Shown: in pieces, positions 2,933 to 35,301 of the stretch
How the letters are laid out: each line of letters opens with the position of its first letter
How positions within the stretch are numbered: the stretch's first letter is position 1
Assembly (NCBI GenBank): GCA_011388275.1
Contig: DSAB01000036.1
Coordinates: forward strand, 1-35,301
Origin: a bacterium
Lineage (GTDB): Bacteria > Zhuqueibacterota > QNDG01 > DSAB01
Length of the DNA stretch: 35,301 bases
Direction: 5' to 3'
Notes under the pieces: generated by a model
The model's input: only the letters and a program-made list of their open reading frames with translations
Databases searched by the model: none
Told to the model about the DNA's origin: nothing
Made by a program: the position numbers and the translations under genes

Positions 2933-5900
2933 TTATCGAAAATCTCCTGTTAGCTGAAAAGCGGCCCAGGCTGAAGGATGCTGATTAACCTGGTCCATAA
3001 CCAGCCGCTGCGCCTTCTGCAGCGCGCGCGCCCGGCTTTCTCCAGCCCGCAGATACCGATAAAATCTTTTAACCAGCACCGCTGTGGCCAGATCATCCAC
3101 CTTCCATAAACTGGTGACAATGGAAGGAGTCCCCGCGAAAATGAACCCGCGCGCCAGACCGATGACATCATCCCCGCGTGTGATGTGGGCCAGTCCCGTC
3201 TCGCAGGCGCTCAGCATCACCAGGCCGCAGTCCAGATCCAATCCGAATATTTCATGGGCCTCAAGACGCCCGTCATCCTGCCCCTCCGGGGTCAGCAGCA
3301 GCGCGGAGAACAGGGGATTGGCCGGTTCATACTCGGCATGGCAGGCGAAATGGATGATTTCGCGATTTCGAACCGCCTCACGGATTTTTGACTCCGTCAC
3401 CTCACTACCATGATACGCCTCAACCTGTTCATAGGTTCTGACAATGGCCTGGACTTCCTTGTCCGCAAAAGGCAGATTGTATTCCGGGCCCAGTGCCGGA
3501 TTGCTGAAAGCCGCTACCGAGCCGGCGGCGATTCGGGTTCGTTCCTTTTCCCGACAGTATCCGAATACCGTAGCGCTGGGAGCCGAAGACAGAGAAAATC
3601 GCTGAATGAGGTATTCATCGCCTTTGATAGCCGCAAAGGGAAGATAGTGAAGAACTCCATGCGGAATCACAACCAGATGATTGATGTCCTTCAGGAAAGA
3701 ATCCACAGGTCGGATCAGCCGGTCATAGAGAGTCCGGGCCTCCCTGTCCACAGACAGATGGGCCTGAATAGACTCCCGGAAACGGCGTGTCTGCCGCTCG
3801 AGCACCGAATCCGGAACCAGCGTCTTCTGAAATTTGAGATCATCCCGGGTCAGACACCAGGTATAGAGCCCCTCGTCCAGATAATAGATCAGCATCGCCG
3901 CGGAATCGGGCAGCACAGACTGAATCTGTTCTACTGACCATGGATCCACCTGAACAAAAGAAGACAGTTCCGGATTCTCGGCCTGAAGACGGACCATAAA
4001 CGCCTCGTATTCCCGGCGCCTCTGTTCCAAAACCGTATGCCATACAGACAACTCATCTTCAGATCCGGTGCCGGACAAGAGAAGGCTGACACGGGTACGG
4101 GCCTCTTCGATCGACTGGCGAATACGACTCTCCTCTTCCAGCCATGCACCCTGCGCTCGAGAGAGCGCCAGGGCCTGATTGGCCAGCAGATCGATGAAAC
4201 TGCGGGACTTGGCCCGCTCCACAAAAGTCAGGGCCTCGCCGTGCCGGTTCAGACGGATCAGCAGCCGGATCATGTCGCTATACAGATCCATCTTGTCATC
4301 GAGAAAACCCTGCTGAAAGGCTTCCACTTTCAGCTCAGCCCTCATCGCTTCGACCAGATCGATGGCTCGGGACAGATCGTCCAGAGCCAGCTCGTGACGT
4401 CCCTGTCCGTCACGAATGCCGGCCCTGAGACGATGAATCCTCCAGGCAATATCCGGAATGCCCAGAGACAAAGCCTGATGCAATGCCGAATCGGCCAGAG
4501 CCAGGGCCAGAGCCGTCTTTCTCTGTGCTTGATACGCCCTGGAAAGACCAAACTGGCATTGAATTTCATTCCTCCTGTCACCCACCCGTCTGGAAAGCAT
4601 ACGCCCCTCCCTGAGAAGAGACACGGCCGACTCGGTTTCGCCTGTTTCCAGATACAGCATGCCGAGATTACGCCAGTCATAGGCCAGCCCTCTTTGATAT
4701 CCCAGTTCGGAATCGATGTCCGCCGCACGCCGAAATGATTCCAGGGCAAGGTCGAAAACTCTTTCCTGGATCGCTACCAGCCCCATGTTTTTCAGTATGG
4801 TGGCCTGATCCTCGAGACTCCCAATAGACTCGGCCATGTTCAAAGCCCGGGCCTGTGCTTCCCTGGCCCGGCGCCGGTCTCCCAGGCTCAGGTAGATCAA
4901 ACCCTGTGTACTGAATGCGGCGGCCAGCATACGGCGGTTTTGACGGGCCTCAAACTGCTCCATCGCCCGGGTTTGATATTCCATGGCCTGCCTGTACCGG
5001 CCTGATTTCCAGTGTATATTGGCCAGATGCTGCAGTGCCTGGGCGGCCTGGTCCGGCCGGTTCAGCGCCTGAAACAGGTTCAGCGAGGCCTGCTGCCGCT
5101 TTAAAGCCTCATCATACAGAGTCAACTGTTCGGCGGCCGATCCCAAAAGTTGAAGCGCCGCCGCCAATTCCATCCGTGCAGTCGAATCGTCTTCGGCCGA
5201 TTTGTGTAAAAACGTAACGGCCTGTTCGAGATGGACATAAGCCTCCTCCGCACGGTCTCCTTCCAGGGCGAAACGCCCGCGCCGGACACGGGCTTTAGCC
5301 AGGGACAGACTGTCGTCGAGACTTCGGTGCGCGATCATAAGAGAGTCCATGATCTGGTCAGCCCGATCGTAACGGCGGTTCAGAGCATAAAGAAACGCCA
5401 GCTCCTCCTGCTTATTCAAAGCCTCTCCAGAGTTTCCGCTGTCGCGCAAATGCCGGATCACTCTCGTCTTGATCCGTGCCGCCTCATCATACCGACGGCT
5501 GTTGATAAAAAACACAACCAGATTTTCCAGGCTTTCCAACACTTTATCAGATCGGCTCAGTCTCTCGGATTCGGTGAGGATCTCTTTCTGAACCGTCACG
5601 GCCTTTTCCCACAATCCTCCCCGGTAACTGGCCCGAATGATCAGCTGACGAATTCGGCCGGCCGTAAAAGAATCGTTCATGGCGCCGGCCATGACTTGTG
5701 CCTGTTCATAGTAACGGATTGCGTCCTCGTAATCCCGTCGCTGTTCATAGCCGAATCCGATCTGCAGAGTCTTGTTCAGGTTGTCGCTGGCGAATCGCAC
5801 ACGTTCCTCGGCATTCATGCCGGCATACCCCATCAGCCGATAACCTGCCCAATCCTTTATGCTTTTTGATGTGCGTCTCACCTCTTTCTGGGCCGAGGCC

Positions 5901-8900
5901 AGGGCTTCCGCAGCCGATAGCCGGATAAGATTTTGATAAAACAACCCGGCCATCCTGCCGCCGGCATCGATTGAAACATCCCAATCCACGAGCACCACTG
6001 CAGGAACTCCGCTGTATAAGAGTCCGTAATAAACCGGCAAAAAGGCCTCTTCCAACTGACCGCCGAAACGGAAAGGAGGAAGAAAGAACAGGCTCGCTTT
6101 CATAGGCAGTGGAAACAGGTCTTCTGCGGTCATCATCACATCCTTGTCAAAACCCGTGAACCCGAATCCTCCGGCCAGAGGTTCCCATTGGTTGACGACC
6201 AGTTCTCCGTACAGGTGAACCAGATCGGCTTTGCCAAGGCTCTCTGCCAGGATGTCTCTGTCCAACCGCTTCCCCTGAATCGTTTTCAGATTGATCGCAG
6301 CCGTGTTGCGCGATATTTGCCTGGCCAATTCCGTACTCCCTCCGGCCATGAGCATGTCGGTCTGATTGATACGGCGCCGTTCATGCGCCATGACAAAGGC
6401 CATAAGACTGGGCGACCAGACCACGGTATGCTGCTCAAGCAGAGGAGGCCTTTCATATGACAATGCGTGAATAGGCACCGGCCACAACGGACCGTCAGGA
6501 ACAATCAAAACCCAGTCTTTTCTCTTCAAGAGAGCCTGTACGGGCTGGATCAGCTCTTTTTCCCAGGTTCTCTGCAGGACTTTCAGGCCGCTGTCTGCCT
6601 TGAGCCCCTGAAAGAGCTCTTTTGTCATAAACATCAACCGATCCCGTGAAATCGGGAGTTCCAGGCATCGGATCGTATCCGTCTCCACGGCAAAAACGAG
6701 AGTGGCCGCTCGCAGAGACACGAAACGAATTGCCGTCCCGTTCCGGGGAATCCGCTCCTGAATCCGTCGTAAGTCCACAGGCAGGGCGCCGGCCATATAG
6801 GCCAGCACCTCGTCTTCCCGCTTCAGTTGGTCCCGCAAAGTCCGATACTCGACTTCATGAACCGCCAGCTGACTTTTCAGTGTCTCGGCGGCAGCGGTAC
6901 CGGAAACCGCTTGGGAAAGAGAAAATCGGGTCTTTCTCAGCATGGTTCGTAAATAACGGACATTGCCCCAGGCGATCTTGTGCCGCTCTTTGGACAGCTC
7001 GGGCGGCCGCCTGGCCAAAATATCCGCAATGAATTTTTGGTGCCCCTGCTCAATCGCGATCAGGGCTTCGTGAATACGGCCCTGTCTAACCATTTCTCCG
7101 GCCGCGTCCGCATAAATCTGTACTCTTTCAACACGGTCCGCCAGACGCTCCTCGCTTCCCTCTTCCTGAACCGGCAGAGCTTCCAGCAGATTTATCGCCT
7201 TTTCATACAGGCCCAGAGCCTTCTCAGCGGAATCCCCTTTCGCTTCTTGCAGCCGGGCCAGTCCGTAATAGACCCTCCATAAAAGTTCCTCCTCTCCTCG
7301 ACGTTCCAGAATCACACGGGCCTGATGATAATATCCCAGGGCGGAACCATAATCACCCAGGGCAGAGTGAACCCCTCCCAGGTTCGCAAAAAACAAGGCT
7401 CGCTGATCATCCAGGTTCAGCGAATCACTCAGGGCGCGTCCAGTCTCAAACCATTGCATGGCCTTCTCATAATCACGAAGCCGTTCAAAGGACACGAGAA
7501 CCTGATCATGCGCGCCTCCTTCGGAATACCGCTCACGTGCGGCCATTGCCCGTAATACACCCAGCTGATGCATCAAAGAAAGACATACCTGCGGATTTTC
7601 TCTTTTGGCCTGGACAAGGGCCCGTTGCAGGATTCTTTCGGCCTCTTCAAAATACTCCATGGAATGGCTCGTCATAAACGCCGCGGCCACATGTGCGAGA
7701 TTCAGTGCATTGATGAGATGTCCCCGCTGATCCTTCTGCTTGCGGCTTTCCAGAAGGGACCAGTGATAGTAATACCATGCCTGATGAAAATCACCCATCC
7801 GGTAATACAGCGTTCCAAGGCGGTTGAGACTGATCCGCCGGGCCATTGCGTCTTTCCTTGCGCGAAAAATGGCCAGCCGCTTCAGCTCGTATTCGAGGGC
7901 TTGATGAAATTGCTTCTCGCTTTCATGGCTGATACTCAACAGATTATAAACAAGAGCGGCTTCATCGGCCTGCGTAAACCCTTCGGATGAGGCTCCTCCA
8001 ATATCGGCCATTCGCCAGACTGGAATGGAAAACCCGAACAGCTCGATGCGAAGCGAACTTGCAGAAGACCGTTTTACGTCAACCGGTGTCTTGATCAGCG
8101 CCAGAGATTTTTCGGCGTACCGAATGGTCTCGCGGGGATCTCCCATCATGTGACAGTTGTAGGCCAGGTTCCGGTAGCCAAGCTGAGCCGCTTCCCGGCG
8201 GCCGTGTCTTTCGTCTTCGACCACCGTCTCCCGATAGATTTCGATGGCTGCTTCAAATTCACCGGCCAGATGATGGATAAAAGCAAGCCTCTGTTTATTT
8301 TGATAGACCTTGTCCTTACGGTCCAGAGAAGCATAGATGTCAATGGCACGGTCCAGAAAACGGGTGACTGTGGCATATTCAGTCACCACCAAACCACAAC
8401 GTCCCGCCCGCTCATAAAAAGTCGCCTCTTCCAATGGATGGCTGAACGTTGAGTCCATTTTCAGCCGAAGCAGATAATAATCAAAAGCCTTTTGATAACC
8501 ATACTCTCCGAGGTTGAAAAAATTATTGGCCAGATTCTGGGCCAAACGCGCCTCCATAAACGGGTCCAGGGTTTCATCGTTGAGTTCCAGGGCTGTGATC
8601 AGAGCAGCAATGGCTTTCTCGTAATACCCTTTCGTTGGGCTATCTCCACCCGGCAGCAGGCCCCAGGCCCAGCGAAGCGGCGCTGTCAACAGATTCAAGA
8701 AGCCTCGTACAAAGCCGTCTTTCTTCAGAGCATCCCTCTCTTCGAGCCGCTCAATCAATTCATAATTGTAACCCAGGGTTCGATAGGGATGAATCATGCG
8801 ATAATCTTCAGCCAGAGCAAGATACAGCCACTCATTGGATTTTTTCAGGATTCTACGGTCCGTTTCCCCCAGGAAGGAAAGAATCAACCCCCTGGCATAC

Positions 8901-11059
8901 AGCAAGGCCGGATTCCGTTTGTCTTCTTCAAGGGCGGCCTCATATTCTGCGGACAGTGTCTCGAGACGGCCGGCCCGATAAGCAGTCTCGATCAGACCGC
9001 GGTGCAGTTCAAGATCGTCGGAATCCATAGCCAGCGCCCTGCGATACCGGGCTTCGGCCAGTCCCAGATCACCGAGACCGGCCAGGCGGCGGGCGGATTC
9101 GGAAAGAATCTGAAAGAGCAACTCCCTTGCCTGTGCATAATAGACGCCTCCCTCCACCGTTGCATACCGATTCATCACTTCTTCCAGGATCAGGGAGGCT
9201 TCGAGTTCTTCTGTCCGCTCCCTGTGAATGCGCGCTCTGGCGATCCTCGATTCGGCCTGGGCCCAATCTTCGAAGCTTGTTTCTTCCAGAACCTGCAGCT
9301 CACGCAAAGCCGAATCCCACTGCCTGCGTTCTGCCAGGACTCCGGCAATGGACAATTGGGCCCTGGCCTGCAATAAAGGAAATTCAGGCAATTCCTGAAT
9401 GACCGCCCGGTATCCCGGGATCGGATCCGCCGCTTCCCTGACCTGAGACAGAAGCCTTTCACCGGCCCGCTCTCGCCACAAGGGAACATCACCGTATTCC
9501 CTTAAAACCGACAAATAAACCAGGCGGGCGGTTTCCTCCTGCTCCTCCTTGAGTACGTCCCCGATTTTCAGGCGCGCCGGGGCTTTCAGATTGGGAAGCC
9601 CTTCTCCCAATTGTACGGCTTCGCTGTAGGCCGAGAGAGCCTGACCTCTCCGTCCTTGTTCCGAATACAAATCGCCGAGAAGGATCCAGGCTTCCACCTG
9701 AACGGATCTCTCGTCCTGAAACTCTTCGATGACCGAGCGGCAGAGTTCGATACGCCGGCTTAGTGAATCCGGACCTGAAGCCTGTTTTAAGCGGGCCCGG
9801 GCCAGAAGCAGCCGATCACCGGGGTCGTTTAAAATGATTTGATCCAGGCATTCCTGCCGCTTGTCAGGACGGTTCAATACCGTATACAGATCGGCCATTT
9901 GAAGCAGAGCCCGGGCTTTCCATTCTTTTTCCCTCGGGAAAAAATCCAGTATCCTTTGATAGCCCAGAATGGACTCATTCAGTGCCTGCCGGGTAAAGGC
10001 CTGAACGGACCATTCCATAGCCATTTCAAATTGACCGGCTGCCGTGGAGACCCTGGGGAATCGTCCTTCAGGAAGCGAAGACCAGATGTCCAGCCCGCCT
10101 CCTCGTGTCGACGTGCAATAAAGTCGTCCATCGGCTCCCCAATGGGGTTGGAAAGAGGATTGTTCACCGGCCGTCAGCCGCAGGCTGCGGTCCCTTTCAT
10201 GCTCTGTTTCCCAGCCGATTGCATCCTCATAAAAAGGCAGGAACCGAAGGGATGCCTGGTCCATGGGCGTGATTCGTCCGTCTCCGTCCGTGTCTTCATC
10301 AAAGCGGACAAAAACCAGAGTGTTTCCATCGGGCGACCAGGCCGGTTCTCTGTCGATCCAGGGTCCGTGTGTCAAAAAGCGTATCCGGCTCTCTGAATCC
10401 GGTATAACCCCGGATAAAAACATAAGTGCGATCTCCCCTTTGGGATTTCGTTGATAGGACGTGAAAGCCAGCTTGCCCTGTATAGACCAGGCCGGATGAT
10501 GTCCTCCGGAGAGCGTGAGGGGGTCCATTTTTCCCGTTTCCCAATCCAGAAGCCAAATGTTTTTCTTTCCGTTCCGGTCCGACACAAATGCCACTTTTCT
10601 CCCGTCCGGAGAGACCGTTGGGTAACCATCCATCCCCAAATACTGAGTCAAAGGCTCCGGTTTCCCGGTAACCCGCCCTCCCCGCTTAAGATTCACGGGG
10701 ATCTTCCATAAATCCCCGCGGGCGTCTCTGCGTTTGGACACAAAAATCAAATGTTTGCCATCCGGATGCCAGCATGGCTCTGTATCTTCCGCCTGGTGTG
10801 TGGTGATCTGCACAGCAGTCCCCGTTGGCAGCGGTTTGATCCATATATCCGGATTTCCGGACCGTTCGGACACAAAGGCCAGCCACCGGCCGTCGGGAGA
10901 AACCGCCGGCCCGTAATCCGGGTCCGGATGTGTGGTCACCTGAATGGGTTCCCGTTCCGCGGGTTCCGATATATTGGTCCCGGCTGCGGTTCCAATCAGC
11001 CAGAAAAAGCAGAAAACAAAGCGGATTCGACTATTTTTTAATCCAGGTTCCGTCATCAC
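2933..11059 (-). CDS. Giant secreted PD40-TPR-CHAT-TPR-CHAT protein (2,708 residues)
   Basis: The start is GTG at 11059 or the adjacent ATG at 11056. A hydrophobic segment at residues 13-28 looks like a signal peptide. Residues about 38-345 carry TolB/PD40 propeller repeats (VSPDGRWLAFVSERSGNPDIW, VSPDGRKVAFVSDRNGKKNI), with a dockerin-like Ca2+ loop at 256-267. TPR-type helices run from about 350 to 1340. A CHAT-like domain follows (about 1340-1745, core from VPDGPLWPVPIHALSYE near 1516), in which the catalytic His position is Glu1619 and no cysteine is present in the corresponding SLFFLPPFRFGG strand. A second TPR array (about 1750-2280) leads to a second CHAT domain (RAKSRSFIDLLA near 2283; HFACHAEY with His2574; LSACETG with Cys2619). 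CHAT domains are caspase/separase-like cysteine proteases. The target is unknown. The start overlaps the YdbL-like gene by 29 bases, so it is probably translated by coupling within the operon. Confidence 0.9.
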   Translation of the reverse strand: MMTEPGLKNSRIRFVFCFFWLIGTAAGTNISEPAEREPIQVTTHPDPDYGPAVSPDGRWLAFVSERSGNPDIWIKPLPTGTAVQITTHQAEDTEPCWHPDGKHLIFVSKRRDARGDLWKIPVNLKRGGRVTGKPEPLTQYLGMDGYPTVSPDGRKVAFVSDRNGKKNIWLLDWETGKMDPLTLSGGHHPAWSIQGKLAFTSYQRNPKGEIALMFLSGVIPDSESRIRFLTHGPWIDREPAWSPDGNTLVFVRFDEDTDGDGRITPMDQASLRFLPFYEDAIGWETEHERDRSLRLTAGEQSSFQPHWGADGRLYCTSTRGGGLDIWSSLPEGRFPRVSTAAGQFEMAMEWSVQAFTRQALNESILGYQRILDFFPREKEWKARALLQMADLYTVLNRPDKRQECLDQIILNDPGDRLLLARARLKQASGPDSLSRRIELCRSVIEEFQDERSVQVEAWILLGDLYSEQGRRGQALSAYSEAVQLGEGLPNLKAPARLKIGDVLKEEQEETARLVYLSVLREYGDVPLWRERAGERLLSQVREAADPIPGYRAVIQELPEFPLLQARAQLSIAGVLAERRQWDSALRELQVLEETSFEDWAQAESRIARARIHRERTEELEASLILEEVMNRYATVEGGVYYAQARELLFQILSESARRLAGLGDLGLAEARYRRALAMDSDDLELHRGLIETAYRAGRLETLSAEYEAALEEDKRNPALLYARGLILSFLGETDRRILKKSNEWLYLALAEDYRMIHPYRTLGYNYELIERLEERDALKKDGFVRGFLNLLTAPLRWAWGLLPGGDSPTKGYYEKAIAALITALELNDETLDPFMEARLAQNLANNFFNLGEYGYQKAFDYYLLRLKMDSTFSHPLEEATFYERAGRCGLVVTEYATVTRFLDRAIDIYASLDRKDKVYQNKQRLAFIHHLAGEFEAAIEIYRETVVEDERHGRREAAQLGYRNLAYNCHMMGDPRETIRYAEKSLALIKTPVDVKRSSASSLRIELFGFSIPVWRMADIGGASSEGFTQADEAALVYNLLSISHESEKQFHQALEYELKRLAIFRARKDAMARRISLNRLGTLYYRMGDFHQAWYYYHWSLLESRKQKDQRGHLINALNLAHVAAAFMTSHSMEYFEEAERILQRALVQAKRENPQVCLSLMHQLGVLRAMAARERYSEGGAHDQVLVSFERLRDYEKAMQWFETGRALSDSLNLDDQRALFFANLGGVHSALGDYGSALGYYHQARVILERRGEEELLWRVYYGLARLQEAKGDSAEKALGLYEKAINLLEALPVQEEGSEERLADRVERVQIYADAAGEMVRQGRIHEALIAIEQGHQKFIADILARRPPELSKERHKIAWGNVRYLRTMLRKTRFSLSQAVSGTAAAETLKSQLAVHEVEYRTLRDQLKREDEVLAYMAGALPVDLRRIQERIPRNGTAIRFVSLRAATLVFAVETDTIRCLELPISRDRLMFMTKELFQGLKADSGLKVLQRTWEKELIQPVQALLKRKDWVLIVPDGPLWPVPIHALSYERPPLLEQHTVVWSPSLMAFVMAHERRRINQTDMLMAGGSTELARQISRNTAAINLKTIQGKRLDRDILAESLGKADLVHLYGELVVNQWEPLAGGFGFTGFDKDVMMTAEDLFPLPMKASLFFLPPFRFGGQLEEAFLPVYYGLLYSGVPAVVLVDWDVSIDAGGRMAGLFYQNLIRLSAAEALASAQKEVRRTSKSIKDWAGYRLMGYAGMNAEERVRFASDNLNKTLQIGFGYEQRRDYEDAIRYYEQAQVMAGAMNDSFTAGRIRQLIIRASYRGGLWEKAVTVQKEILTESERLSRSDKVLESLENLVVFFINSRRYDEAARIKTRVIRHLRDSGNSGEALNKQEELAFLYALNRRYDRADQIMDSLMIAHRSLDDSLSLAKARVRRGRFALEGDRAEEAYVHLEQAVTFLHKSAEDDSTARMELAAALQLLGSAAEQLTLYDEALKRQQASLNLFQALNRPDQAAQALQHLANIHWKSGRYRQAMEYQTRAMEQFEARQNRRMLAAAFSTQGLIYLSLGDRRRAREAQARALNMAESIGSLEDQATILKNMGLVAIQERVFDLALESFRRAADIDSELGYQRGLAYDWRNLGMLYLETGETESAVSLLREGRMLSRRVGDRRNEIQCQFGLSRAYQAQRKTALALALADSALHQALSLGIPDIAWRIHRLRAGIRDGQGRHELALDDLSRAIDLVEAMRAELKVEAFQQGFLDDKMDLYSDMIRLLIRLNRHGEALTFVERAKSRSFIDLLANQALALSRAQGAWLEEESRIRQSIEEARTRVSLLLSGTGSEDELSVWHTVLEQRRREYEAFMVRLQAENPELSSFVQVDPWSVEQIQSVLPDSAAMLIYYLDEGLYTWCLTRDDLKFQKTLVPDSVLERQTRRFRESIQAHLSVDREARTLYDRLIRPVDSFLKDINHLVVIPHGVLHYLPFAAIKGDEYLIQRFSLSSAPSATVFGYCREKERTRIAAGSVAAFSNPALGPEYNLPFADKEVQAIVRTYEQVEAYHGSEVTESKIREAVRNREIIHFACHAEYEPANPLFSALLLTPEGQDDGRLEAHEIFGLDLDCGLVMLSACETGLAHITRGDDVIGLARGFIFAGTPSIVTSLWKVDDLATAVLVKRFYRYLRAGESRARALQKAQRLVMDQVNQHPSAWAAFQLTGDFR
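10259..10294 (-). other. Dockerin/EF-hand-like calcium-binding loop in the giant protein
   Basis: Codons here encode DTDGDGRITPMD, which matches the canonical EF-hand/dockerin loop pattern D-x-D-x-D-G-x-I-x-x-x-D/E (Asp256, 258, 260, Gly261, Ile263, Asp267). It sits within the N-terminal propeller region, between PD40 repeats. A single loop of this kind usually binds structural calcium, which fits an extracytoplasmic location. That it binds calcium is an inference from the pattern. Confidence 0.65.
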
Positions 11060-26097: not shown

Positions 26098-29000
26098 TTA
26101 AAATTCAGCACCCAGCGTAAAGTAATGAATGGGCTTGTCGCTGGATTCCAGATTGGTACCCCAGGCGATATCATATTTAAGCAGAAAAAATCCCAAATTC
26201 AAGCGAGCCCCGATTCCGTATCCTGCGCGCAGATCATGCAGAACCGGAAGACCGAATTTATTGGAGCTGAAAGGTTTCCACTTGGAATCGTCATTCCAGG
26301 CGGATCCGACATCCATGAACAGGGCACCCCGAATATTCTGAAACCCGACAGGCAGAGGCCAGCCGAAAACCAGATAGTGGATCAATGGAAACCGTATTTC
26401 AAGATTGGTCAATACGAAACGGGTTCCGATCATTTGATAGTACAAGGATCCCCGCAGAGGGGTTTCGAAACTCGAGAAATAAAAAATGTCCCCGGATCCC
26501 CAGTATTCATCCGGTATTTGATGATAGCGGTAGTTGAACCAGCCCCGCATCCCTCCCAGTAAAAACCTCTGGGGATTTTCTCCACCGGACACTCCTCCAC
26601 AGAGACGGGTTACAAAGATAAAGTCCTTATGAATCCTCCAGTAATTTCTCCAGTCTCCCTTGAAGGTCCAGAAATCCAGCCCGTAATCTTCGCTGATTGA
26701 AGGGCTGTACGTGAATGAAAAACTGGAGCGGGTCCCGTTGACCGGTCCGGTACTTCCCCAGAGCACGGTATCGGTCTTATAACCGATATTGGCCAGAATC
26801 AGGTGTCGCTTATACAAATTGCCCAGATCACTCAATTCGGTCACTCCGTAATAGTAGGCCAGATAGGGATCGATTACTCCATAATCCCTTTCGATGACCA
26901 CTCCGGTGAGGCCGAAGTCCACACGCCGAAAGCGGCTGAACGGGCGGGAGAGATACAGAGTCAGCCCGTAATTGCGATCCCGGTAATATCCCCAGTAATA
27001 ACCCGTCCCGTCGTAAAAATACGTAAAGTACAAGTAAGAATAATGAAACAACGACACCCCGAGATCCGTCCGTTTGGGTAAATAATAATACGCCAGCTGG
27101 AAATTGGAATTTTTCAGGTTGTAGAAAATATCGGTATACAAATTGATCTGATGGTTCCCGAGAATATCGGAAAAGGCGATCATGGTCGACCCCTGAAGAC
27201 CGAAAAACTGACTGTAACCCGCTCCGCCGGCAACAACATCCGGAGAAAACCGAATTTTATACGTGTTCGTTTTATATTCGCCATCTTCCTTATAGACCAA
27301 ACTGTCCAGAAACGTTCTCTTTTTCGAATCTTCCAATGTGATTTGTCCCTGCCGAAAGTCGTCGTCAAAAACAAACCGGCTGTAATCTTTCGATGTTGTT
27401 TCTTCACCGGGCGATACTTCCTGGACGGCCGACTCTTTTCCCTCTTTTTCTGTTTTCTTCATAAAGGACGTTTTCTCAAGAACCACGGACCCGGATTCTA
27501 TTTTTATTGGATGGTTGAGCAGAAAAAGATCATAACCTCCATAATAATAGGTCGAAAAAGCGATCCGGTCTTTCTCCCGAGCCCATGAGATCTGGGACAC
27601 ACCGGAAATCAGATTGGTAATCGGATAAATGCTGCCGGTCTCCAGATCGCAGATATGGATATTGTCGATTCCATTCCGATCAGAGATAAATGCGATCTTG
27701 TTTCCGTCCGGCGAATACGCCGGGGATGCCTCCCTGTATACATCATGTGTGTGCCGCCGGATCCGGCCCGTTTGAATATCTATCGTATAGAGATCCTTCT
27801 GTTGATAAGAATGATCCGACATTCGGAACGTTTCATCCAAATCACCCGTATGCCGGTCTCGATCTGATATAAAGGCGATTTGATCACCCGTCGGTGACCA
27901 GACAGGATCCCAGTCACCAAAAATGTCATTAGTGAGCGGCTCAAGCTTTTCCTCATTGAGATGAAAAAGATAGAGATCGGACTGCCCCCCCTGTGTGCCC
28001 ATAAAAACAATGGTCTTCCCGTCCGGAGACCAGTCCGGAGAAAAGATGCCGTCCAGAGCAAGTTTATACGTATGCAGCACTTTCCCGTTCTCCGCGTCCA
28101 GGATGAAAAGCGCATCGCCGGACCCGGCTTTGGCCGCCATGACAATCCTGTCTCCCTGCGGTGCCCACCCGATACCCGGACGGGTCCAGTGAACTTCCTC
28201 GAACAATTCGCTTCTCTGTCCTTTAACCAGACGTTTCCTGATTTTCTTTTCAATCGTATCCATCAAATACAGATCAATATAATCGGAACGGTTGGAAAGA
28301 AACACCATTTTGTCCCCCTGGGGAGAAAGATAGGGAGAATTGTTCAGCCTGGCCCGCTCCTTCTTATGGTCTGTCAGCCGGATGGCGATGTCTCCGGGCT
28401 CATCCCGGCCCTGAATATCAGGCCAGTAACGGGTCCTTAGATACTTATGCCATTTTTGGGTCAGTTTCTCTTCATCCATGCCCAGTGTCTTTTTAATCCC
28501 CTGCTCGAAGTTCTTATAAAGTTTCAGATTGAAAAACAAATCTCCGATTTTTTCCTGTCCATACTGATCCGCAATGAAATTCAAGACGGATTGCCCTCCC
28601 TTGTAAGCCAGGTAGCCATACAACTGAGATATCGGCGGCAAATATCCGCTGATCGTCGCATCCCTCATGAACATATCGCTCTCTGAATCCCATCCCACAC
28701 TCTGATACTCGGCAATCCCCTCAACCAGCCATAACGGCAGCTGGAAACGGGCCAGGCCCGAGATCATGGATCCCATTCGGCCGCCGTACATCATTTGATT
28801 CATCACCGCGTGGGTCAGCTCATGATGCAGCAGCCTTCGGTAATCATCATGGCTTCCCCGAAAAGCCACCACAACCCGGTTCTTGAAGATCTCGGTAAAA
28901 CCCTGCACGCCTTCCTCGAGAAGAACATAAAGCACGTTGGTTTGTTCAAAATCATTATGACTGTTATAGACCAAAATCGGAATCCTGTTTTCAATGGAAT

Positions 29001-29247
29001 ATTTCAAACCCTTTTCCAGGGCCACATAACTGGACTCGGCCGCATCGGCCGTGAACTCGGCAAGCTCTCTTCCTTCACCATAATAATAAACATCGAAATA
29101 TCTCGACTGGAGAAAATTCCACTGAAAATCCTTATATTGAATTTTGTTTTTTCCAAATTGCTGAGCCGCCGAAACGGCAGAGAGAAAACAGGTTGCAATC
29201 AAAAGGAGGGTCCCTGGATACTGTTTTCTGAACCGATCGCAAAACAT
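26098..29247 (-). CDS. Metallopeptidase / TolB-propeller / outer-membrane barrel fusion protein
   Basis: This is a 1,049-residue protein. A signal peptide (about 1-28) is followed by a peptidase-MA-like domain with the zinc motif HELTH (His142, Glu143, His146) and a likely third ligand in WLVEGIAEY (Glu176). PD40/TolB propeller repeats then run from about 290 to 600 (LSPQGDKMVFLSNR, WSPDGKTIVFMG, YSPDGNKIAFISDR). A C-terminal third rich in Tyr-containing amphipathic strands resembles an Omp85/surface-antigen barrel (ALFMDVGSAWND, GYGIGARLNLGFFLLKYDIAWG) and ends in the outer-membrane signature phenylalanine. It is probably embedded in the outer membrane with peptidase and propeller in the periplasm. 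GGAG lies eight bases before the ATG. Whether the peptidase is active or acts as an assembly factor is unknown. Confidence 0.85.
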   Translation of the reverse strand: MFCDRFRKQYPGTLLLIATCFLSAVSAAQQFGKNKIQYKDFQWNFLQSRYFDVYYYGEGRELAEFTADAAESSYVALEKGLKYSIENRIPILVYNSHNDFEQTNVLYVLLEEGVQGFTEIFKNRVVVAFRGSHDDYRRLLHHELTHAVMNQMMYGGRMGSMISGLARFQLPLWLVEGIAEYQSVGWDSESDMFMRDATISGYLPPISQLYGYLAYKGGQSVLNFIADQYGQEKIGDLFFNLKLYKNFEQGIKKTLGMDEEKLTQKWHKYLRTRYWPDIQGRDEPGDIAIRLTDHKKERARLNNSPYLSPQGDKMVFLSNRSDYIDLYLMDTIEKKIRKRLVKGQRSELFEEVHWTRPGIGWAPQGDRIVMAAKAGSGDALFILDAENGKVLHTYKLALDGIFSPDWSPDGKTIVFMGTQGGQSDLYLFHLNEEKLEPLTNDIFGDWDPVWSPTGDQIAFISDRDRHTGDLDETFRMSDHSYQQKDLYTIDIQTGRIRRHTHDVYREASPAYSPDGNKIAFISDRNGIDNIHICDLETGSIYPITNLISGVSQISWAREKDRIAFSTYYYGGYDLFLLNHPIKIESGSVVLEKTSFMKKTEKEGKESAVQEVSPGEETTSKDYSRFVFDDDFRQGQITLEDSKKRTFLDSLVYKEDGEYKTNTYKIRFSPDVVAGGAGYSQFFGLQGSTMIAFSDILGNHQINLYTDIFYNLKNSNFQLAYYYLPKRTDLGVSLFHYSYLYFTYFYDGTGYYWGYYRDRNYGLTLYLSRPFSRFRRVDFGLTGVVIERDYGVIDPYLAYYYGVTELSDLGNLYKRHLILANIGYKTDTVLWGSTGPVNGTRSSFSFTYSPSISEDYGLDFWTFKGDWRNYWRIHKDFIFVTRLCGGVSGGENPQRFLLGGMRGWFNYRYHQIPDEYWGSGDIFYFSSFETPLRGSLYYQMIGTRFVLTNLEIRFPLIHYLVFGWPLPVGFQNIRGALFMDVGSAWNDDSKWKPFSSNKFGLPVLHDLRAGYGIGARLNLGFFLLKYDIAWGTNLESSDKPIHYFTLGAEF

Positions 29248-31333: not shown

Positions 31334-31984
31334 TCAGTGGCTTTTGCCCAACGCTTCTTCTCTTTGCTTTCGACCGCCCAGGTTCAGTTTTCTCAGGTAA
31401 CGCCACACCGTCAGAGTGCCCACCCGACTGAATCCATATTTCTCTGTATTCAGCTCTCTGGAAATGCGGGATGGTCCCCACGATACATTCTCCAATGCCA
31501 GCTGTCGTATTTTCTCATCCAGTCCTTGAGGAATACTTTGCATTTCCATTTCCGGCTCTTCAGACACCATTTCAGGCCGATCCTCTTCGTCCACCGGTTC
31601 TGCCCTTTTCAGAGTCGAAATGCCCATTTCTTCTTCAAAGCTGTTGATTGCCTCCTCAACCGTATCAAATGCCTTGAGGATATAATGAAATTCCAGAAGC
31701 TCGAAAACTTCATAAACATCGGGAATCATGCGAGCCAGTTTCAGATCTCCATTCCTTTCCCGCATTCCCTTGATTTCACTGATAAAAATCCCCCACCCCG
31801 CACTGGAAATATAATCCACATTCCCCAGATCAATAATCACGCGGAACACACCCGCCTTCAACAGGGAATCCAACGCCCTTTCCAGCTCAGAGGATGTCGT
31901 TGTATCAATATAACCGCCGACACGGATGATGGAAATATCACTTTGAGGTCCGATTTTCTCAACTGAAACCTGAATGCCTTCCAT
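31334..31984 (-). CDS. STAS anti-anti-sigma-like protein fused to a helix-turn-helix domain
   Basis: This is a 216-residue protein starting at the ATG at 31984, which has an AAGGAG seven bases upstream. Residues 1-115 form a STAS domain with the phospho-acceptor loop LGNVDYISSAGWGIF (Ser60/Ser61). An acidic linker (EEDRPEMVSEEPEMEM) follows. The C-terminal 60 residues are a helix-turn-helix of the IS481/IS3-transposase type (ENVSWGPSRISRELNTEKYG, then TLTVWRYLRKLNL). STAS proteins normally act by binding an anti-sigma kinase when unphosphorylated and have no DNA-binding part. Here the protein could bind DNA directly. The neighbouring phosphatase protein carries a matching module. Confidence 0.88.
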   Translation of the reverse strand: MEGIQVSVEKIGPQSDISIIRVGGYIDTTTSSELERALDSLLKAGVFRVIIDLGNVDYISSAGWGIFISEIKGMRERNGDLKLARMIPDVYEVFELLEFHYILKAFDTVEEAINSFEEEMGISTLKRAEPVDEEDRPEMVSEEPEMEMQSIPQGLDEKIRQLALENVSWGPSRISRELNTEKYGFSRVGTLTVWRYLRKLNLGGRKQREEALGKSH

Positions 31985-32069: not shown

Positions 32070-35000
32070 CTACAAATACTGCTGCCTGATCACCCTCTGC
32101 ATCTTCTTGATTCTTTCGATGATATCCCGCCTTTCCGGATTCCTTTTCAAAACTTCCCCCCATTGCCAAACCGCCTTTTTATAATCCCCCCGATTGGCAA
32201 ATATCACTCCCAGATTTTCCAACACACTGACATTGCCCGGGTCCAGATGACGAACCCGTTCATAGGCATCCCTGGCTTCTTCCATTCGACCCATTCGAAA
32301 ATAGGTATCGCCAAGACATTGAAACGCATCGGCAAATTCCGGATCTTCTTTAACGGCTTTTTGAAATGCATCGACCGCCGCCTGATAATCCCCCGCCCTG
32401 TATAAAACAAGACCTCTGTTTAAAAAGTGGGTTTTTCGTTGATGAATGATCGCGGGGCTGGGTTTTTCCCGCCTCGGGGTTTTCCCGGTTGACAACATGT
32501 TTCGGCGATCGAAGCCCAGTTCCTCCATCACATCGATGAATCCATCTTCCTCCTGATCCGATACAGACAAAGTGGTATTCTCCTCGACACCCATCTCTTC
32601 ACTGATTAAATCACCCACAATGGATGCGGTGATATGGTCTTCGATTTCATTCTCTTCATGCTCTGAATCCACTTCCTCATTCAGCAATTCGTCCATTGAG
32701 GGTACACGCTCCTGTGTACCGACCAATTCTTCTTCGAATGAAGACTCTCCATTCAGATCCAGCACATCGGTAATGATTTCGTTGAGAACCGACTCTTCCT
32801 GCTGCACACTGTCTTCGATCAGCGATTCAGGGCTTTCCATCTCAAAATCGATTTCATCTTCTCGCAAAACATCCTCTTGCATGATACGCCCGTCGGCTGT
32901 CTCAGAAACGGTTTTTCCATCTTCCGGTGTTTCCTTTTCTTCCTTCTCCGTCTCCTTGTAATCGGTTTCCAGGTCTTCCGCCTGACCGGGCAGCCCCAAA
33001 AAACGGTCTAAAACATCGGTATCTTCCTTTCTTCCTTCATCTTTTTGCCGTGAACTTCTCTGCGATATGCGCAATACTTTGGACTGTGGAAAATCATCGG
33101 ATACCGAATCCGGTTCACCGGCCGGAGAACCATCGATAATGACCTTGCCGTCCATGGTCAGCATCGGAGTACCGGGTGTTTTAATGCGTTTGGCTTTGCC
33201 CCCCCGCTCGATAAAATTCATGCGCAGTTCCCTGGTGTTCAGACGGCTGCGCTTGAGTTCATCATAGATGCGTCGTTCATCCATTTTCACGTAACCGTAT
33301 TTTTCCGAATTCAACTCTTCGCTGATCCGCTTGGCTCCGAATTCAGGATTGTTCTTAATAATATCCAGAATCCTGGCTTTGTCTTCAATGCTGGTGTGCT
33401 TTTCTTCAAGATCAGACCGTTGCGTGGTTTCTTTTAATCCTTCAATTCCCTGCTTGTCATAGCGTTTTTTATATTTATAATAGGTGGATGTGGAAACACC
33501 GATAATCTCACAGGCTTCCTTAACGCTTTTTCCCTCTTCATTCACCAATCCAATAAGCCTTAGCCGCCGGTTGTACATCACATCTTCCGCCTTCAGTTTT
33601 TCCCGAATCGCCATTAAAGTGATATCATCACTCTGAGCAAACCCCTGAGTGAAATCCTTGATCTCATCCTGTAGCTTGTCAACCAACGGATCCACTTTCA
33701 GTTCTCCATGGCGGCGTATCGATTCCAGAAACCGTTCGTCGCCGTATCGCTCTCTTTTTGGGTCCATCGCTTCGGTGATCCCGTCCGTATAGAGAATTAA
33801 TACATCGCCTTCCCTCAGCCACAGGTTATCGGATTGAATCGATTTCCTGAACAGTGTCCGATCAGGCAGGTTGATGCCAATGGGAAATCCTCTTGGATTC
33901 AAATAATAACTTTTCCTGGTTTGCCCGCGAAAGAGAATCATGGGATTATGACCCGCACTGGCATAATTGATGGTTCGGTTTTGAGAATCAAGAATCAGAT
34001 AAAAAACCGTGACAAACATACCGCGCTTCATATCGTTTATGACAAAATCATTGACCCTGGCCAGCACATCCGCCGCGTTTTTGTTTCCCCTTGCCTCCGT
34101 TCTCAGGGCCGTTCGAATCATGGTCATAACCAGAGAACCGGGCACGCCTTTTCCCGACACATCAGCCACCACAATGCCCAGAGTATCTTTGTCCACTTCC
34201 ACAAAATCAAAATAGTCGCCTCCCACTTCCTTGGCCGCTTCATAGTAGGATGCGATCTCATAGCCTTCAATTTCCGGAAACACCGCCGGTAAAAGAGTAT
34301 GTTGAATTTCCTGCGCAACCTGCATCTCTTTCTGAAGCCGTTCCTGTTCCGCCAAATTTTCCTGCGACTTGCGGAACTTTTCCGTAATCTCATTAAAGGC
34401 TTGTGCGATCTCGCCGACTTCATCGGATGCGTTGAATTCCATTTCATCCTGAGACTCACCCCGGCCTAAATCGCGGACCCACCTGGACAGTTTTTTAAAC
34501 GGGCTCATGGTTACATAAACCAATATAAAAACGCCCAGATACCCGATTACAAGCACAACAATACCGATCCCCATGGTCCTATGACGGGCCTGACGAATAT
34601 TTCCATCAATATAGTTTTTACTGAGCAGCAAATGAATCTGTCCCAGCCGGTTTGCCCTTCCCGAAACTTCATGAACAACCGGTTCGGTAAGATCGTATAC
34701 AGTCTCTTCGGTTGCCGGTATTGTATACTTCCAAACCGATGGAAAAAAGAGTACCGCATCAGACGGACGGCGATATTGCTGGAACAGGTATTCCGTAGTG
34801 ACCGCTCCTTTGATGGTGCCGCTGGTGTCGGCCACAATGGCCTCAACAATAAAAGGATCCTGATTCCGCTGAAGAGTTGATGCAATCTTCGTCAACTCCC
34901 ACATCTCATCATTCGTCAATGGATCGAGAATGCTGGAAGCCATGGATCTTGCCAGGGCCCTTCCCATATCAAAACTTTCATTTAAAATCACTTTTTCCTG

Positions 35001-35301
35001 ACGAATATAATTATAGGTGATGCCTATAACAGCCAGAAAGGTAAGTATCGCCGACGCAATTAAAGAAAATCGGTTCTTCATGGTTAGTGACAGTTCCGGC
35101 ACCAATAACTTTCTGCCTGATTCCGTTTCCCGATTTTTCGTTAACCGAAGTTCATTGCCTTCGGGTGTTTTGCGATAATCGATCTCATCGATCACCCGGC
35201 GAATGATAAAAATCCCCAAACCGCCTTTCTTCCCGATGTCCACATACCTTTGCAGATCGGGATCCTTGGCCTGATTGGGATCAAATGTATGACCCTGATC
35301 A
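32070..35301 (-). CDS. Membrane-bound kinase/SpoIIE phosphatase/HTH/TPR fusion protein, 5' end beyond window
   Basis: The frame is open to the right edge; a GTG at 35243 is internal. Bases 35300 to about 35130 encode the end of an RsbW-type ATPase/kinase domain (DQGHTFDP, GGLGIFIIRRVIDEIDY, GNELRLTKN). Then come a membrane helix (about 35075-35010), a periplasmic sensor of about 140 residues, a second helix (about 34575-34510) and a HAMP and coil. A complete SpoIIE/PP2C phosphatase follows (EVGGDYFDF, VVADVSGKGVPG, YTDGITEAMD, SDDITL; 34310-33600). Two helix-turn-helix units (33580-33440 and 33410-33230) resemble transposase DNA-binding regions. A highly acidic linker (about 33000-32510) leads to about three TPRs (32430-32080). 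It probably phosphorylates and dephosphorylates STAS partners in response to an envelope signal; the downstream STAS protein is the obvious candidate. Confidence 0.87.
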   Translation of the reverse strand, partial: DQGHTFDPNQAKDPDLQRYVDIGKKGGLGIFIIRRVIDEIDYRKTPEGNELRLTKNRETESGRKLLVPELSLTMKNRFSLIASAILTFLAVIGITYNYIRQEKVILNESFDMGRALARSMASSILDPLTNDEMWELTKIASTLQRNQDPFIVEAIVADTSGTIKGAVTTEYLFQQYRRPSDAVLFFPSVWKYTIPATEETVYDLTEPVVHEVSGRANRLGQIHLLLSKNYIDGNIRQARHRTMGIGIVVLVIGYLGVFILVYVTMSPFKKLSRWVRDLGRGESQDEMEFNASDEVGEIAQAFNEITEKFRKSQENLAEQERLQKEMQVAQEIQHTLLPAVFPEIEGYEIASYYEAAKEVGGDYFDFVEVDKDTLGIVVADVSGKGVPGSLVMTMIRTALRTEARGNKNAADVLARVNDFVINDMKRGMFVTVFYLILDSQNRTINYASAGHNPMILFRGQTRKSYYLNPRGFPIGINLPDRTLFRKSIQSDNLWLREGDVLILYTDGITEAMDPKRERYGDERFLESIRRHGELKVDPLVDKLQDEIKDFTQGFAQSDDITLMAIREKLKAEDVMYNRRLRLIGLVNEEGKSVKEACEIIGVSTSTYYKYKKRYDKQGIEGLKETTQRSDLEEKHTSIEDKARILDIIKNNPEFGAKRISEELNSEKYGYVKMDERRIYDELKRSRLNTRELRMNFIERGGKAKRIKTPGTPMLTMDGKVIIDGSPAGEPDSVSDDFPQSKVLRISQRSSRQKDEGRKEDTDVLDRFLGLPGQAEDLETDYKETEKEEKETPEDGKTVSETADGRIMQEDVLREDEIDFEMESPESLIEDSVQQEESVLNEIITDVLDLNGESSFEEELVGTQERVPSMDELLNEEVDSEHEENEIEDHITASIVGDLISEEMGVEENTTLSVSDQEEDGFIDVMEELGFDRRNMLSTGKTPRREKPSPAIIHQRKTHFLNRGLVLYRAGDYQAAVDAFQKAVKEDPEFADAFQCLGDTYFRMGRMEEARDAYERVRHLDPGNVSVLENLGVIFANRGDYKKAVWQWGEVLKRNPERRDIIERIKKMQRVIRQQYL

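What the first reader, a model, noticed from the sequence alone, without database searches (positions are those of the whole stretch)
32070..35301. Kinase, phosphatase, DNA-binding and TPR domains in one membrane protein
One reading frame runs from the end of an RsbW-like kinase domain through a two-helix membrane sensor, HAMP, an apparently complete SpoIIE phosphatase, two helix-turn-helix units and TPRs. Partner switching usually splits kinase and phosphatase between proteins. Carrying both, together with DNA-binding units, on one membrane-anchored chain would let it set the phosphorylation state of its STAS partner and possibly tether DNA to the membrane.
Basis: partly seen in the sequence, partly recalled or inferred. 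Interest (0 to 1): 0.72.

Follow-up and report, generated by a model that had tools for sequence, protein, structure and literature searches.

The report
Membrane switch carrying transposase DNA-binding domains
A whole bacterial lineage carries one membrane protein that has a kinase, the opposing phosphatase and a DNA-binding module taken from a transposase, made next to its presumed target protein, which carries half of the same module; this suggests a previously undescribed way of wiring an outside signal to gene control.

Summary
The last 123 bases of the window recur only at the end of contig C118. Joined there, the frame gives one 1158-aa protein: complete RsbW-type kinase, TM–sensor–TM, HAMP, complete SpoIIE phosphatase, a bipartite helix-turn-helix, an acidic disordered linker and TPRs. 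Sixty complete relatives on single contigs carry the kinase in the same frame, so this is no frameshift or misassembly. The gene is in 76 of 82 genomes of the phylum (48 of 49 good ones) and in Calditrichota, almost always beside a PorV/PorQ-type barrel gene and a STAS gene.

Kinase plus phosphatase on one chain is already known (SypE, HsbR/CrsR, Rv1364c). Two things I did not find described. The two "HTH units" are one domesticated IS481 transposase DNA-binding region. The STAS partner carries the second half of that region as a basic C-terminal domain. A second STAS protein with the same tail sits in an exopolysaccharide locus.

Best reading: a membrane-sensing bifunctional kinase/phosphatase that sets the phosphorylation of STAS–HTH outputs. 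The partner relation is well supported. DNA binding by the HTHs, and DNA tethering to the membrane, remain inference; a protein-docking role is the main rival.

The parts
32070..35301 (-). In-window part (aa 83-1158 and stop) of the 1158-aa kinase/phosphatase/HTH/TPR membrane protein; aa 1-82 lie on contig C118 (L003:5148-5393; the 123-bp overlap continues to 5515)
35136..35300 (-). C-terminal part of the HATPase_c_2 (RsbW-type) kinase domain, aa 83-137 of 12-137; N-box E49/N53 and the start of the domain are on L003
35013..35069 (-). Transmembrane helix 1, aa 160-178
   Evidence: hydrophobicity; long helix in the model of a relative
34569..35012 (-). Periplasmic sensor domain, aa 179-326; variable; sCache_3_2 recognised in 4 of 52 relatives
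34512..34568 (-). Transmembrane helix 2, aa 327-345
34380..34511 (-). HAMP domain, aa 346-389, followed by a coiled coil
33603..34190 (-). SpoIIE/PP2C phosphatase, aa 453-648; catalytic Asp residues invariant in 52 of 52
33432..33569 (-). HTH1, aa 660-705, first half of the IS481-type DNA-binding region
33207..33398 (-). HTH2, aa 717-780, second half of the IS481-type region; homologous to the STAS tail
33129..33206 (-). Conserved basic motif R-x-K-x-PGTP-x-LT-x-DG-x-VI, aa 781-806; possibly a relic of the start of the transposase DDE domain (weak)
32439..33128 (-). Acidic, poorly conserved (presumably disordered) linker, aa 807-1036, net charge -48
32127..32423 (-). TPR repeats, aa 1042-1140; absent in a Calditrichia subset, a separate gene in L170
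31334..31984 (-). STAS-HTH partner, 216 aa from the conserved start MEGIQ (the ORF extends to 32008)
31631..31984 (-). STAS domain of the partner, aa 1-118; predicted phospho-acceptor Ser61 at 31802-31804, in an SSAG motif invariant in 57 of 57
31340..31522 (-). Basic C-terminal four-helix half-HTH of the STAS partner, aa 155-215

Best explanation
The gene encodes a bifunctional membrane switch. A periplasmic (sCache-like) sensor acts through HAMP and a coiled coil to set the balance between an RsbW-type serine kinase at the N-terminus and a SpoIIE-type phosphatase. Both act on the STAS protein encoded next door, at Ser61. The STAS protein is the output, as SypA is for SypE. Its phosphorylation state decides whether it stays docked on the kinase domain at the membrane or is free to act. 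Its basic C-terminal domain, the second half of an IS481 transposase DNA-binding region, most likely contacts DNA. The complete IS481-type region on the enzyme is either a second DNA contact or a docking site for the STAS tail. A second STAS protein with the same tail, in the exopolysaccharide locus, is a likely second substrate, so the switch probably controls the cell surface (polysaccharide and PorV/T9SS-type export). Shown here: architecture, active-site residues, conservation, synteny, homology of the two HTH domains, one natural fusion. Inferred: enzyme activity, STAS as substrate, direction of signalling, DNA binding, regulated process.
For: Kinase: E49, N53, D83, G85 and GGLG invariant in 52 of 52; phosphatase D441, D459, D585, D637, D638 (L098 numbering) invariant. 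Partner-interface residues keep the spacing reported for SypE/SypA in PMC10120452: R23-E49 = 26 like SypE R22-E48; STAS D27-S61 = 34 like SypA D22-S56; all invariant. Enzyme and STAS genes same strand and adjacent in 65 loci. Fusion of HATP-sensor-PP2C-HTH with a STAS domain in one ORF, L169. 76 of 82 phylum genomes. STAS fold closest to SpoIIAA in its SpoIIAB complex, Z 16.6; PP2C closest to SiaA, RssB and Rv1364c, kinase to RsbW. IS481 profile on both proteins; STAS tail versus HTH2 hhalign probability 98.6; same helix order and similar spacing. STAS tail mean charge +8.1. Second STAS-HTH in the EPS locus in all 8 loci inspected, tails ending KR(Y/H/F)R(F/Y)YRSR in 7 of 8.
Against: HTH1 has an inserted residue in its recognition helix in 28 of 52 relatives, and the mean charges of HTH1 (-0.8) and HTH2 (+1.2) are near neutral, so the enzyme's HTH may not bind DNA. 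The genome has two other RsbW-like kinases, so the EPS-locus STAS could belong to another kinase. No sigma factor or DNA site was identified. The window gene spans two contigs; its continuity rests on a unique 123-bp overlap plus relatives.
Confidence: 0.5

Rival explanations
1. Docking model: the HTH domains have lost DNA binding and now serve protein contacts. The basic STAS tail docks on the enzyme's HTH2 or on its acidic linker, which gives substrate specificity and recruitment; the STAS domain then acts on a protein target (polysaccharide synthesis or export), as SypA and SiaC do.
For: The same domain on enzyme and substrate; the enzyme HTH near neutral and HTH1 altered in 28 of 52; linker strongly acidic in all 53 measured (median -0.21 charge per residue, 215-531 aa) against a basic tail; STAS-HTH placed among glycosyltransferase and export genes.
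Against: A basic half-HTH ending in KR(Y/H/F)R(F/Y)YRSR is also what a nucleic-acid binder looks like. In the window's own order HTH1 is canonical. The TPR/linker-less Calditrichia subset still keeps the STAS tail.
Confidence: 0.32
2. Canonical sigma switch: the HATPase domain sequesters a sigma factor, the STAS protein is the antagonist that releases it, and the HTH domains only help position the complex.
For: RsbW-like domain; STAS fold nearest to SpoIIAA; HsbR and CrsR, bifunctional enzymes, do bind RpoS.
Against: No sigma-factor gene seen among the conserved neighbours (not searched genome-wide); a membrane-anchored enzyme with its own phosphatase resembles SypE, where STAS is downstream; it does not explain HTH on both partners.
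Confidence: 0.12
3. Artefact: two separate genes joined by a misassembly or frameshift at the contig end.
For: The kinase domain is cut by the contig end in this genome.
Against: Sixty complete ORFs with the kinase in frame in other genomes, on single contigs; relative G001 aligned over query 1-784 without interruption at 68% identity.
Confidence: 0.01

Closest known systems
SypE/SypA of Vibrio fischeri (PMC10120452, PMC4517449)
   Same: RsbW-type kinase at the N-terminus and PP2C phosphatase towards the C-terminus of one chain; STAS protein downstream as output; a conserved Ser; interface residues with the same spacing; link to exopolysaccharide (second STAS)
   Different: SypE is soluble with a central REC domain; here a membrane sensor and HAMP lie between; SypE and SypA have no HTH; no TPR
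HsbR/HsbA and CrsR/CrsA (PMC6482189)
   Same: Kinase/anti-sigma domain and PP2C on one chain acting on a STAS protein
   Different: REC-PP2C-kinase order, soluble, no HTH, output through FlgM, HsbD or RpoS
SiaA/SiaB/SiaC of Pseudomonas aeruginosa (PMC7647112)
   Same: Two-membrane-span protein with HAMP and PP2C (SiaA); best structural match to the phosphatase domain
   Different: Kinase SiaB is a separate protein; phospho-Thr; no HTH
Rv1364c of Mycobacterium tuberculosis (PDB 3ke6; PMC12143880)
   Same: Phosphatase and anti-sigma kinase domain on one chain; STAS fused as in L169
   Different: PAS sensor, kinase after phosphatase, no HTH
IS481 family transposase (NF033577)
   Same: Bipartite N-terminal HTH region aligns in order over profile positions 1-126
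   Different: DDE catalytic domain absent; fused to a signalling enzyme

Membership tests
RsbW/SpoIIAB-type serine kinase (HATPase_c_2) | Full-length HATPase_c_2 domain with N-box Glu/Asn and the D-x-G and GxxG-type motifs | tested here: met
   Pfam 1-127 of 127, 5e-28; E49, N53, D83, G85, G108-G111 invariant
RsbW/SpoIIAB-type serine kinase (HATPase_c_2) | Phosphorylates a STAS Ser and/or binds a sigma factor | not testable with these tools
   needs biochemistry
SpoIIE/PP2C phosphatase | Complete domain with metal-binding Asp residues | tested here: met
   2-190 of 192, 4e-51; Asp residues 52 of 52; SiaA/RssB fold
One-chain bifunctional partner-switch enzyme (SypE, HsbR) | Kinase and PP2C on one chain with a cognate STAS protein | tested here: met
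   (cognate relation by adjacency and fusion, not by assay)
One-chain bifunctional partner-switch enzyme (SypE, HsbR) | Receiver domain as input | tested here: not met
   No REC hit among the Pfam matches of 52 members; HAMP in 49 of 52. It works like SypE but is not filed as a SypE orthologue
STAS anti-sigma-factor antagonist | STAS fold with phosphorylatable Ser | tested here: met
   TIGR00377 above cut-off; S60 and S61 invariant in 57 of 57; SpoIIAA fold Z 16.6
[quoted passage not shown]
   C-terminal helical domain, homologous to IS481 HTH2
IS481 transposase | N-terminal bipartite HTH | tested here: met
   NF033577 positions 1-126, 3e-18
IS481 transposase | DDE catalytic domain; score over the curated cut-off | tested here: not met
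   match ends at 126 of 284; 66.5 bits against cut-off 224

The most novel reading that the evidence does not exclude
A transposase DNA-binding region was split and domesticated into a signalling pair. The STAS phospho-protein is itself a DNA-binding regulator whose DNA contact is switched by a membrane kinase/phosphatase carrying the matching HTH, so that target loci (exopolysaccharide and outer-membrane export operons) are captured at, or released from, the membrane.
Probability: 0.3. Interest if true: 0.82.

Novelty: new variant of a known kind. Interest (0 to 1): 0.62.

Why it matters
How STAS proteins act when they, not the kinase, are the output (SypA, RbaV, HmpV) is described as unknown in the literature read here (PMC8256260, PMC10120452). 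Here the STAS output carries a built-in candidate effector domain, which makes that question directly testable. It also appears to be a lineage-wide, apparently vertically kept domestication of a transposase DNA-binding region into signalling, found in 48 of 49 good genomes of the phylum, in bacteria whose surface regulation is little studied.

Tried and rejected
Misassembly or frameshift: rejected by 60 complete relatives. Wide horizontal spread: odd NCBI titles (Deltaproteobacteria, Actinomycetota, Bacteroidetes, Cloacimonas) sit deep inside the KSB1/Calditrichota clades of the tree, most likely mislabelled bins; only L169 and L170 branch outside, on long branches. Full IS481 transposase as source in this genome: none found, only these two proteins match the profile. 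Relatives of the HTH on plasmids: no tblastn match. PDB sequence relatives of the HTH pair: only what look like chance hits to acetyltransferases and antibodies. Charge as a test of DNA binding: inconclusive for the window protein, since real IS481 regions range from -2 to +20 and this one is +4. Searching around L169's phylum was not possible: 'of' takes G handles only. The VIA search covered only the STAS domain, not the tail. A DNA-motif search for binding sites was not attempted.

Full report
OBSERVATION. The window is the whole of contig C20 of its genome. On the minus strand an open frame runs from 35300 to a stop at 32070 and is open at the contig end. The last 123 bases of the window occur in one other place only, the end of contig C118 (5515 bp, L003). 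Joined through that overlap, the frame starts at an ATG at L003:5148, shortly after the stop of the upstream gene (5133), and encodes 1158 residues without a stop. Pfam gives a full-length HATPase_c_2 (12-137), HAMP (346-389), SpoIIE (453-648), HTH_23/HTH_28 (660-705), HTH_32 (688-761, just under its cut-off) and TPRs (about 1042-1140). Two strongly hydrophobic helices lie at 160-178 and 327-345.

WHO HAS IT. A search of 59 relatives found matches in all at E<=1e-40; the close relative G001 aligns over 1-784 at 68% identity. With the HTH region alone (A1), 76 of 82 genomes of the phylum match, 48 of 49 of the good ones, nearly always once. The named scan of genome contigs gave 76 loci, nearly all candidate division KSB1 or Calditrichota. 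On the tree the family splits into a Calditrichia clade and a KSB1 clade; odd titles fall inside them; L169 (titled Krumholzibacteriia) and L170 are long outside branches.

ANATOMY. In 20 aligned proteins the kinase, phosphatase and HTH2 regions are conserved (mostly about 65-95% agreement per column block), the sensor is variable (about 30-44%), the linker is hardly conserved and the TPRs moderately. All catalytic positions checked are invariant in 52. HAMP is found in 49 of 52; 4 of 52 sensors match sCache_3_2. The AlphaFold model of a relative (L098, residues 1-807, pLDDT 79) shows kinase, long TM helices flanking a mixed sensor domain, coiled coil, PP2C, a three-helix HTH1 and a four-helix HTH2. 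Foldseek puts SiaA-PP2C, RssB and Rv1364c first and RsbW of the RsbV/RsbW complex for the kinase. The linker is acidic in all 53 proteins measured (-48 over 230 residues in the window). Twelve complete relatives lack TPRs, and L170 has them as a separate gene after the STAS gene.

THE HTH PAIR. Residues 660-791 match NF033577, IS481 transposase, over profile positions 1-126 of 284 at 2.7e-18: the bipartite DNA-binding region in order, without the DDE domain. The genome holds no full IS481 transposase; the only two profile matches are this protein and its STAS neighbour. Relatives do hold real IS481 elements, and the alignment with them is continuous through both HTHs. The conserved PGTP-x-LT-x-DG motif aligns with the first strand of their catalytic domain; I note this as a possible relic only. 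HTH1 is canonical in the window's order but has an inserted residue in its recognition helix in 28 of 52 relatives.

THE STAS PARTNER. The next gene (31334-31984) encodes a STAS domain, a disordered linker and a C-terminal four-helix domain. The fold is closest to SpoIIAA in the SpoIIAB complex (Z 16.6, rmsd 2.2 over 114). The tail is homologous to HTH2 of the enzyme (hhalign probability 98.6, E 5e-16 for that one pair, 30% identity over 63 columns), matches the second half of the IS481 profile (weakly, 0.0047), has helices in the same order with similar spacing, and is basic (mean +8.1). Ser60, Ser61 and Asp27 are invariant in 57 of 57. The spacing D27-S61 (34) equals SypA D22-S56, and R23-E49 (26) in the kinase equals SypE R22-E48, the interface reported in PMC10120452.

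SURROUNDINGS. The order large CARDB/T9SS-tail-type protein - PorV/PorQ-family barrel with TPRs - enzyme - STAS-HTH is kept in most of 20 loci from other genomes; PorV-enzyme adjacency was seen in 63 and enzyme-STAS adjacency in 65 named loci. In L169 the STAS domain is fused to the same chain after the HTHs, direct evidence that the two work together. A second STAS with the same tail lies in an exopolysaccharide locus by a GT5 glycosyltransferase and Poly_export/Wzz genes in all 8 loci looked at (families assigned by Pfam in L087, by order and sequence resemblance in the others); the tails end KR(Y/H/F)R(F/Y)YRSR in 7 of 8. Some genomes have longer paralogues (1640-1990 aa) with the same N-terminal half but only HTH2.

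HOW IT PROBABLY WORKS. Shown: architecture, intact catalytic residues, conservation, synteny, fusion, homology of the two HTH domains. Inferred: the sensor biases kinase against phosphatase, which sets phosphorylation of STAS Ser61; STAS is the output, as in SypE/SypA; the basic half-HTH gives it a nucleic-acid contact; the enzyme's IS481 region either also binds DNA or docks the STAS tail. I put the enzyme-substrate relation at about 0.85, DNA binding by the STAS tail at about 0.5, DNA binding by the enzyme at about 0.35 and membrane tethering of DNA at about 0.2; the combined statement gets 0.5 because it allows both roles for the enzyme's HTH.

COMPARISON. Kinase plus phosphatase on one chain is known: SypE (kinase-REC-PP2C), HsbR/CrsR (REC-PP2C-kinase), Rv1364c. 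SiaA is the closest membrane/HAMP phosphatase, with a separate kinase SiaB. None of these is described there with an HTH, and my literature searches found no STAS-HTH or IS481-derived partner-switch protein (open-access library only). I therefore call it a new variant of a known kind.

LIMITS. No binding or enzyme data; the junction to C118 rests on overlap plus relatives; the scan outside the lineage used exact peptide patterns, so distant relatives elsewhere may be missed; literature coverage is partial.

Noticed in passing
L087:8133-8948 (G000:C3): Second STAS protein with the same C-terminal half-HTH, inside an exopolysaccharide locus (GT5, Poly_export/SLBB, Wzz/BY-kinase); same place in 7 other genomes.
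   Followed up: partly
L169:3994-6834: Natural fusion of kinase-sensor-HAMP-PP2C-HTH1-HTH2 with a STAS domain in one ORF, cut by the contig end; the record is titled Krumholzibacteriia.
   Followed up: partly
L200-L204: Paralogues of 1640-1990 aa in one family: same N-terminal half, HTH2 only, about 1000 further residues, TPRs at the end; L202 also has a stand-alone copy of the kinase domain next door.
   Followed up: no
window 2933-11059 (-): 2708-aa protein with PD40 propeller, many TPRs and two CHAT (caspase-like) domain stretches.
   Followed up: no
window 26098-29247 (-): Peptidase_MA_2 + PD40 propeller + Omp85 barrel in one 1049-aa protein, an unusual combination, also present near the locus in several relatives.
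   Followed up: no
L003:1-5133: Upstream genes: CARDB-type repeats ending in a weak T9SS-type tail, then a PorV/PorQ-family barrel with TPRs; the adjacency suggests that the switch serves a type IX-like export or surface system.
   Followed up: partly
window 33129-33206 (-): The conserved PGTP-x-LT-x-DG motif after HTH2 aligns with the first catalytic strand of IS481 transposases and may be a relic of the lost DDE domain.
   Followed up: no
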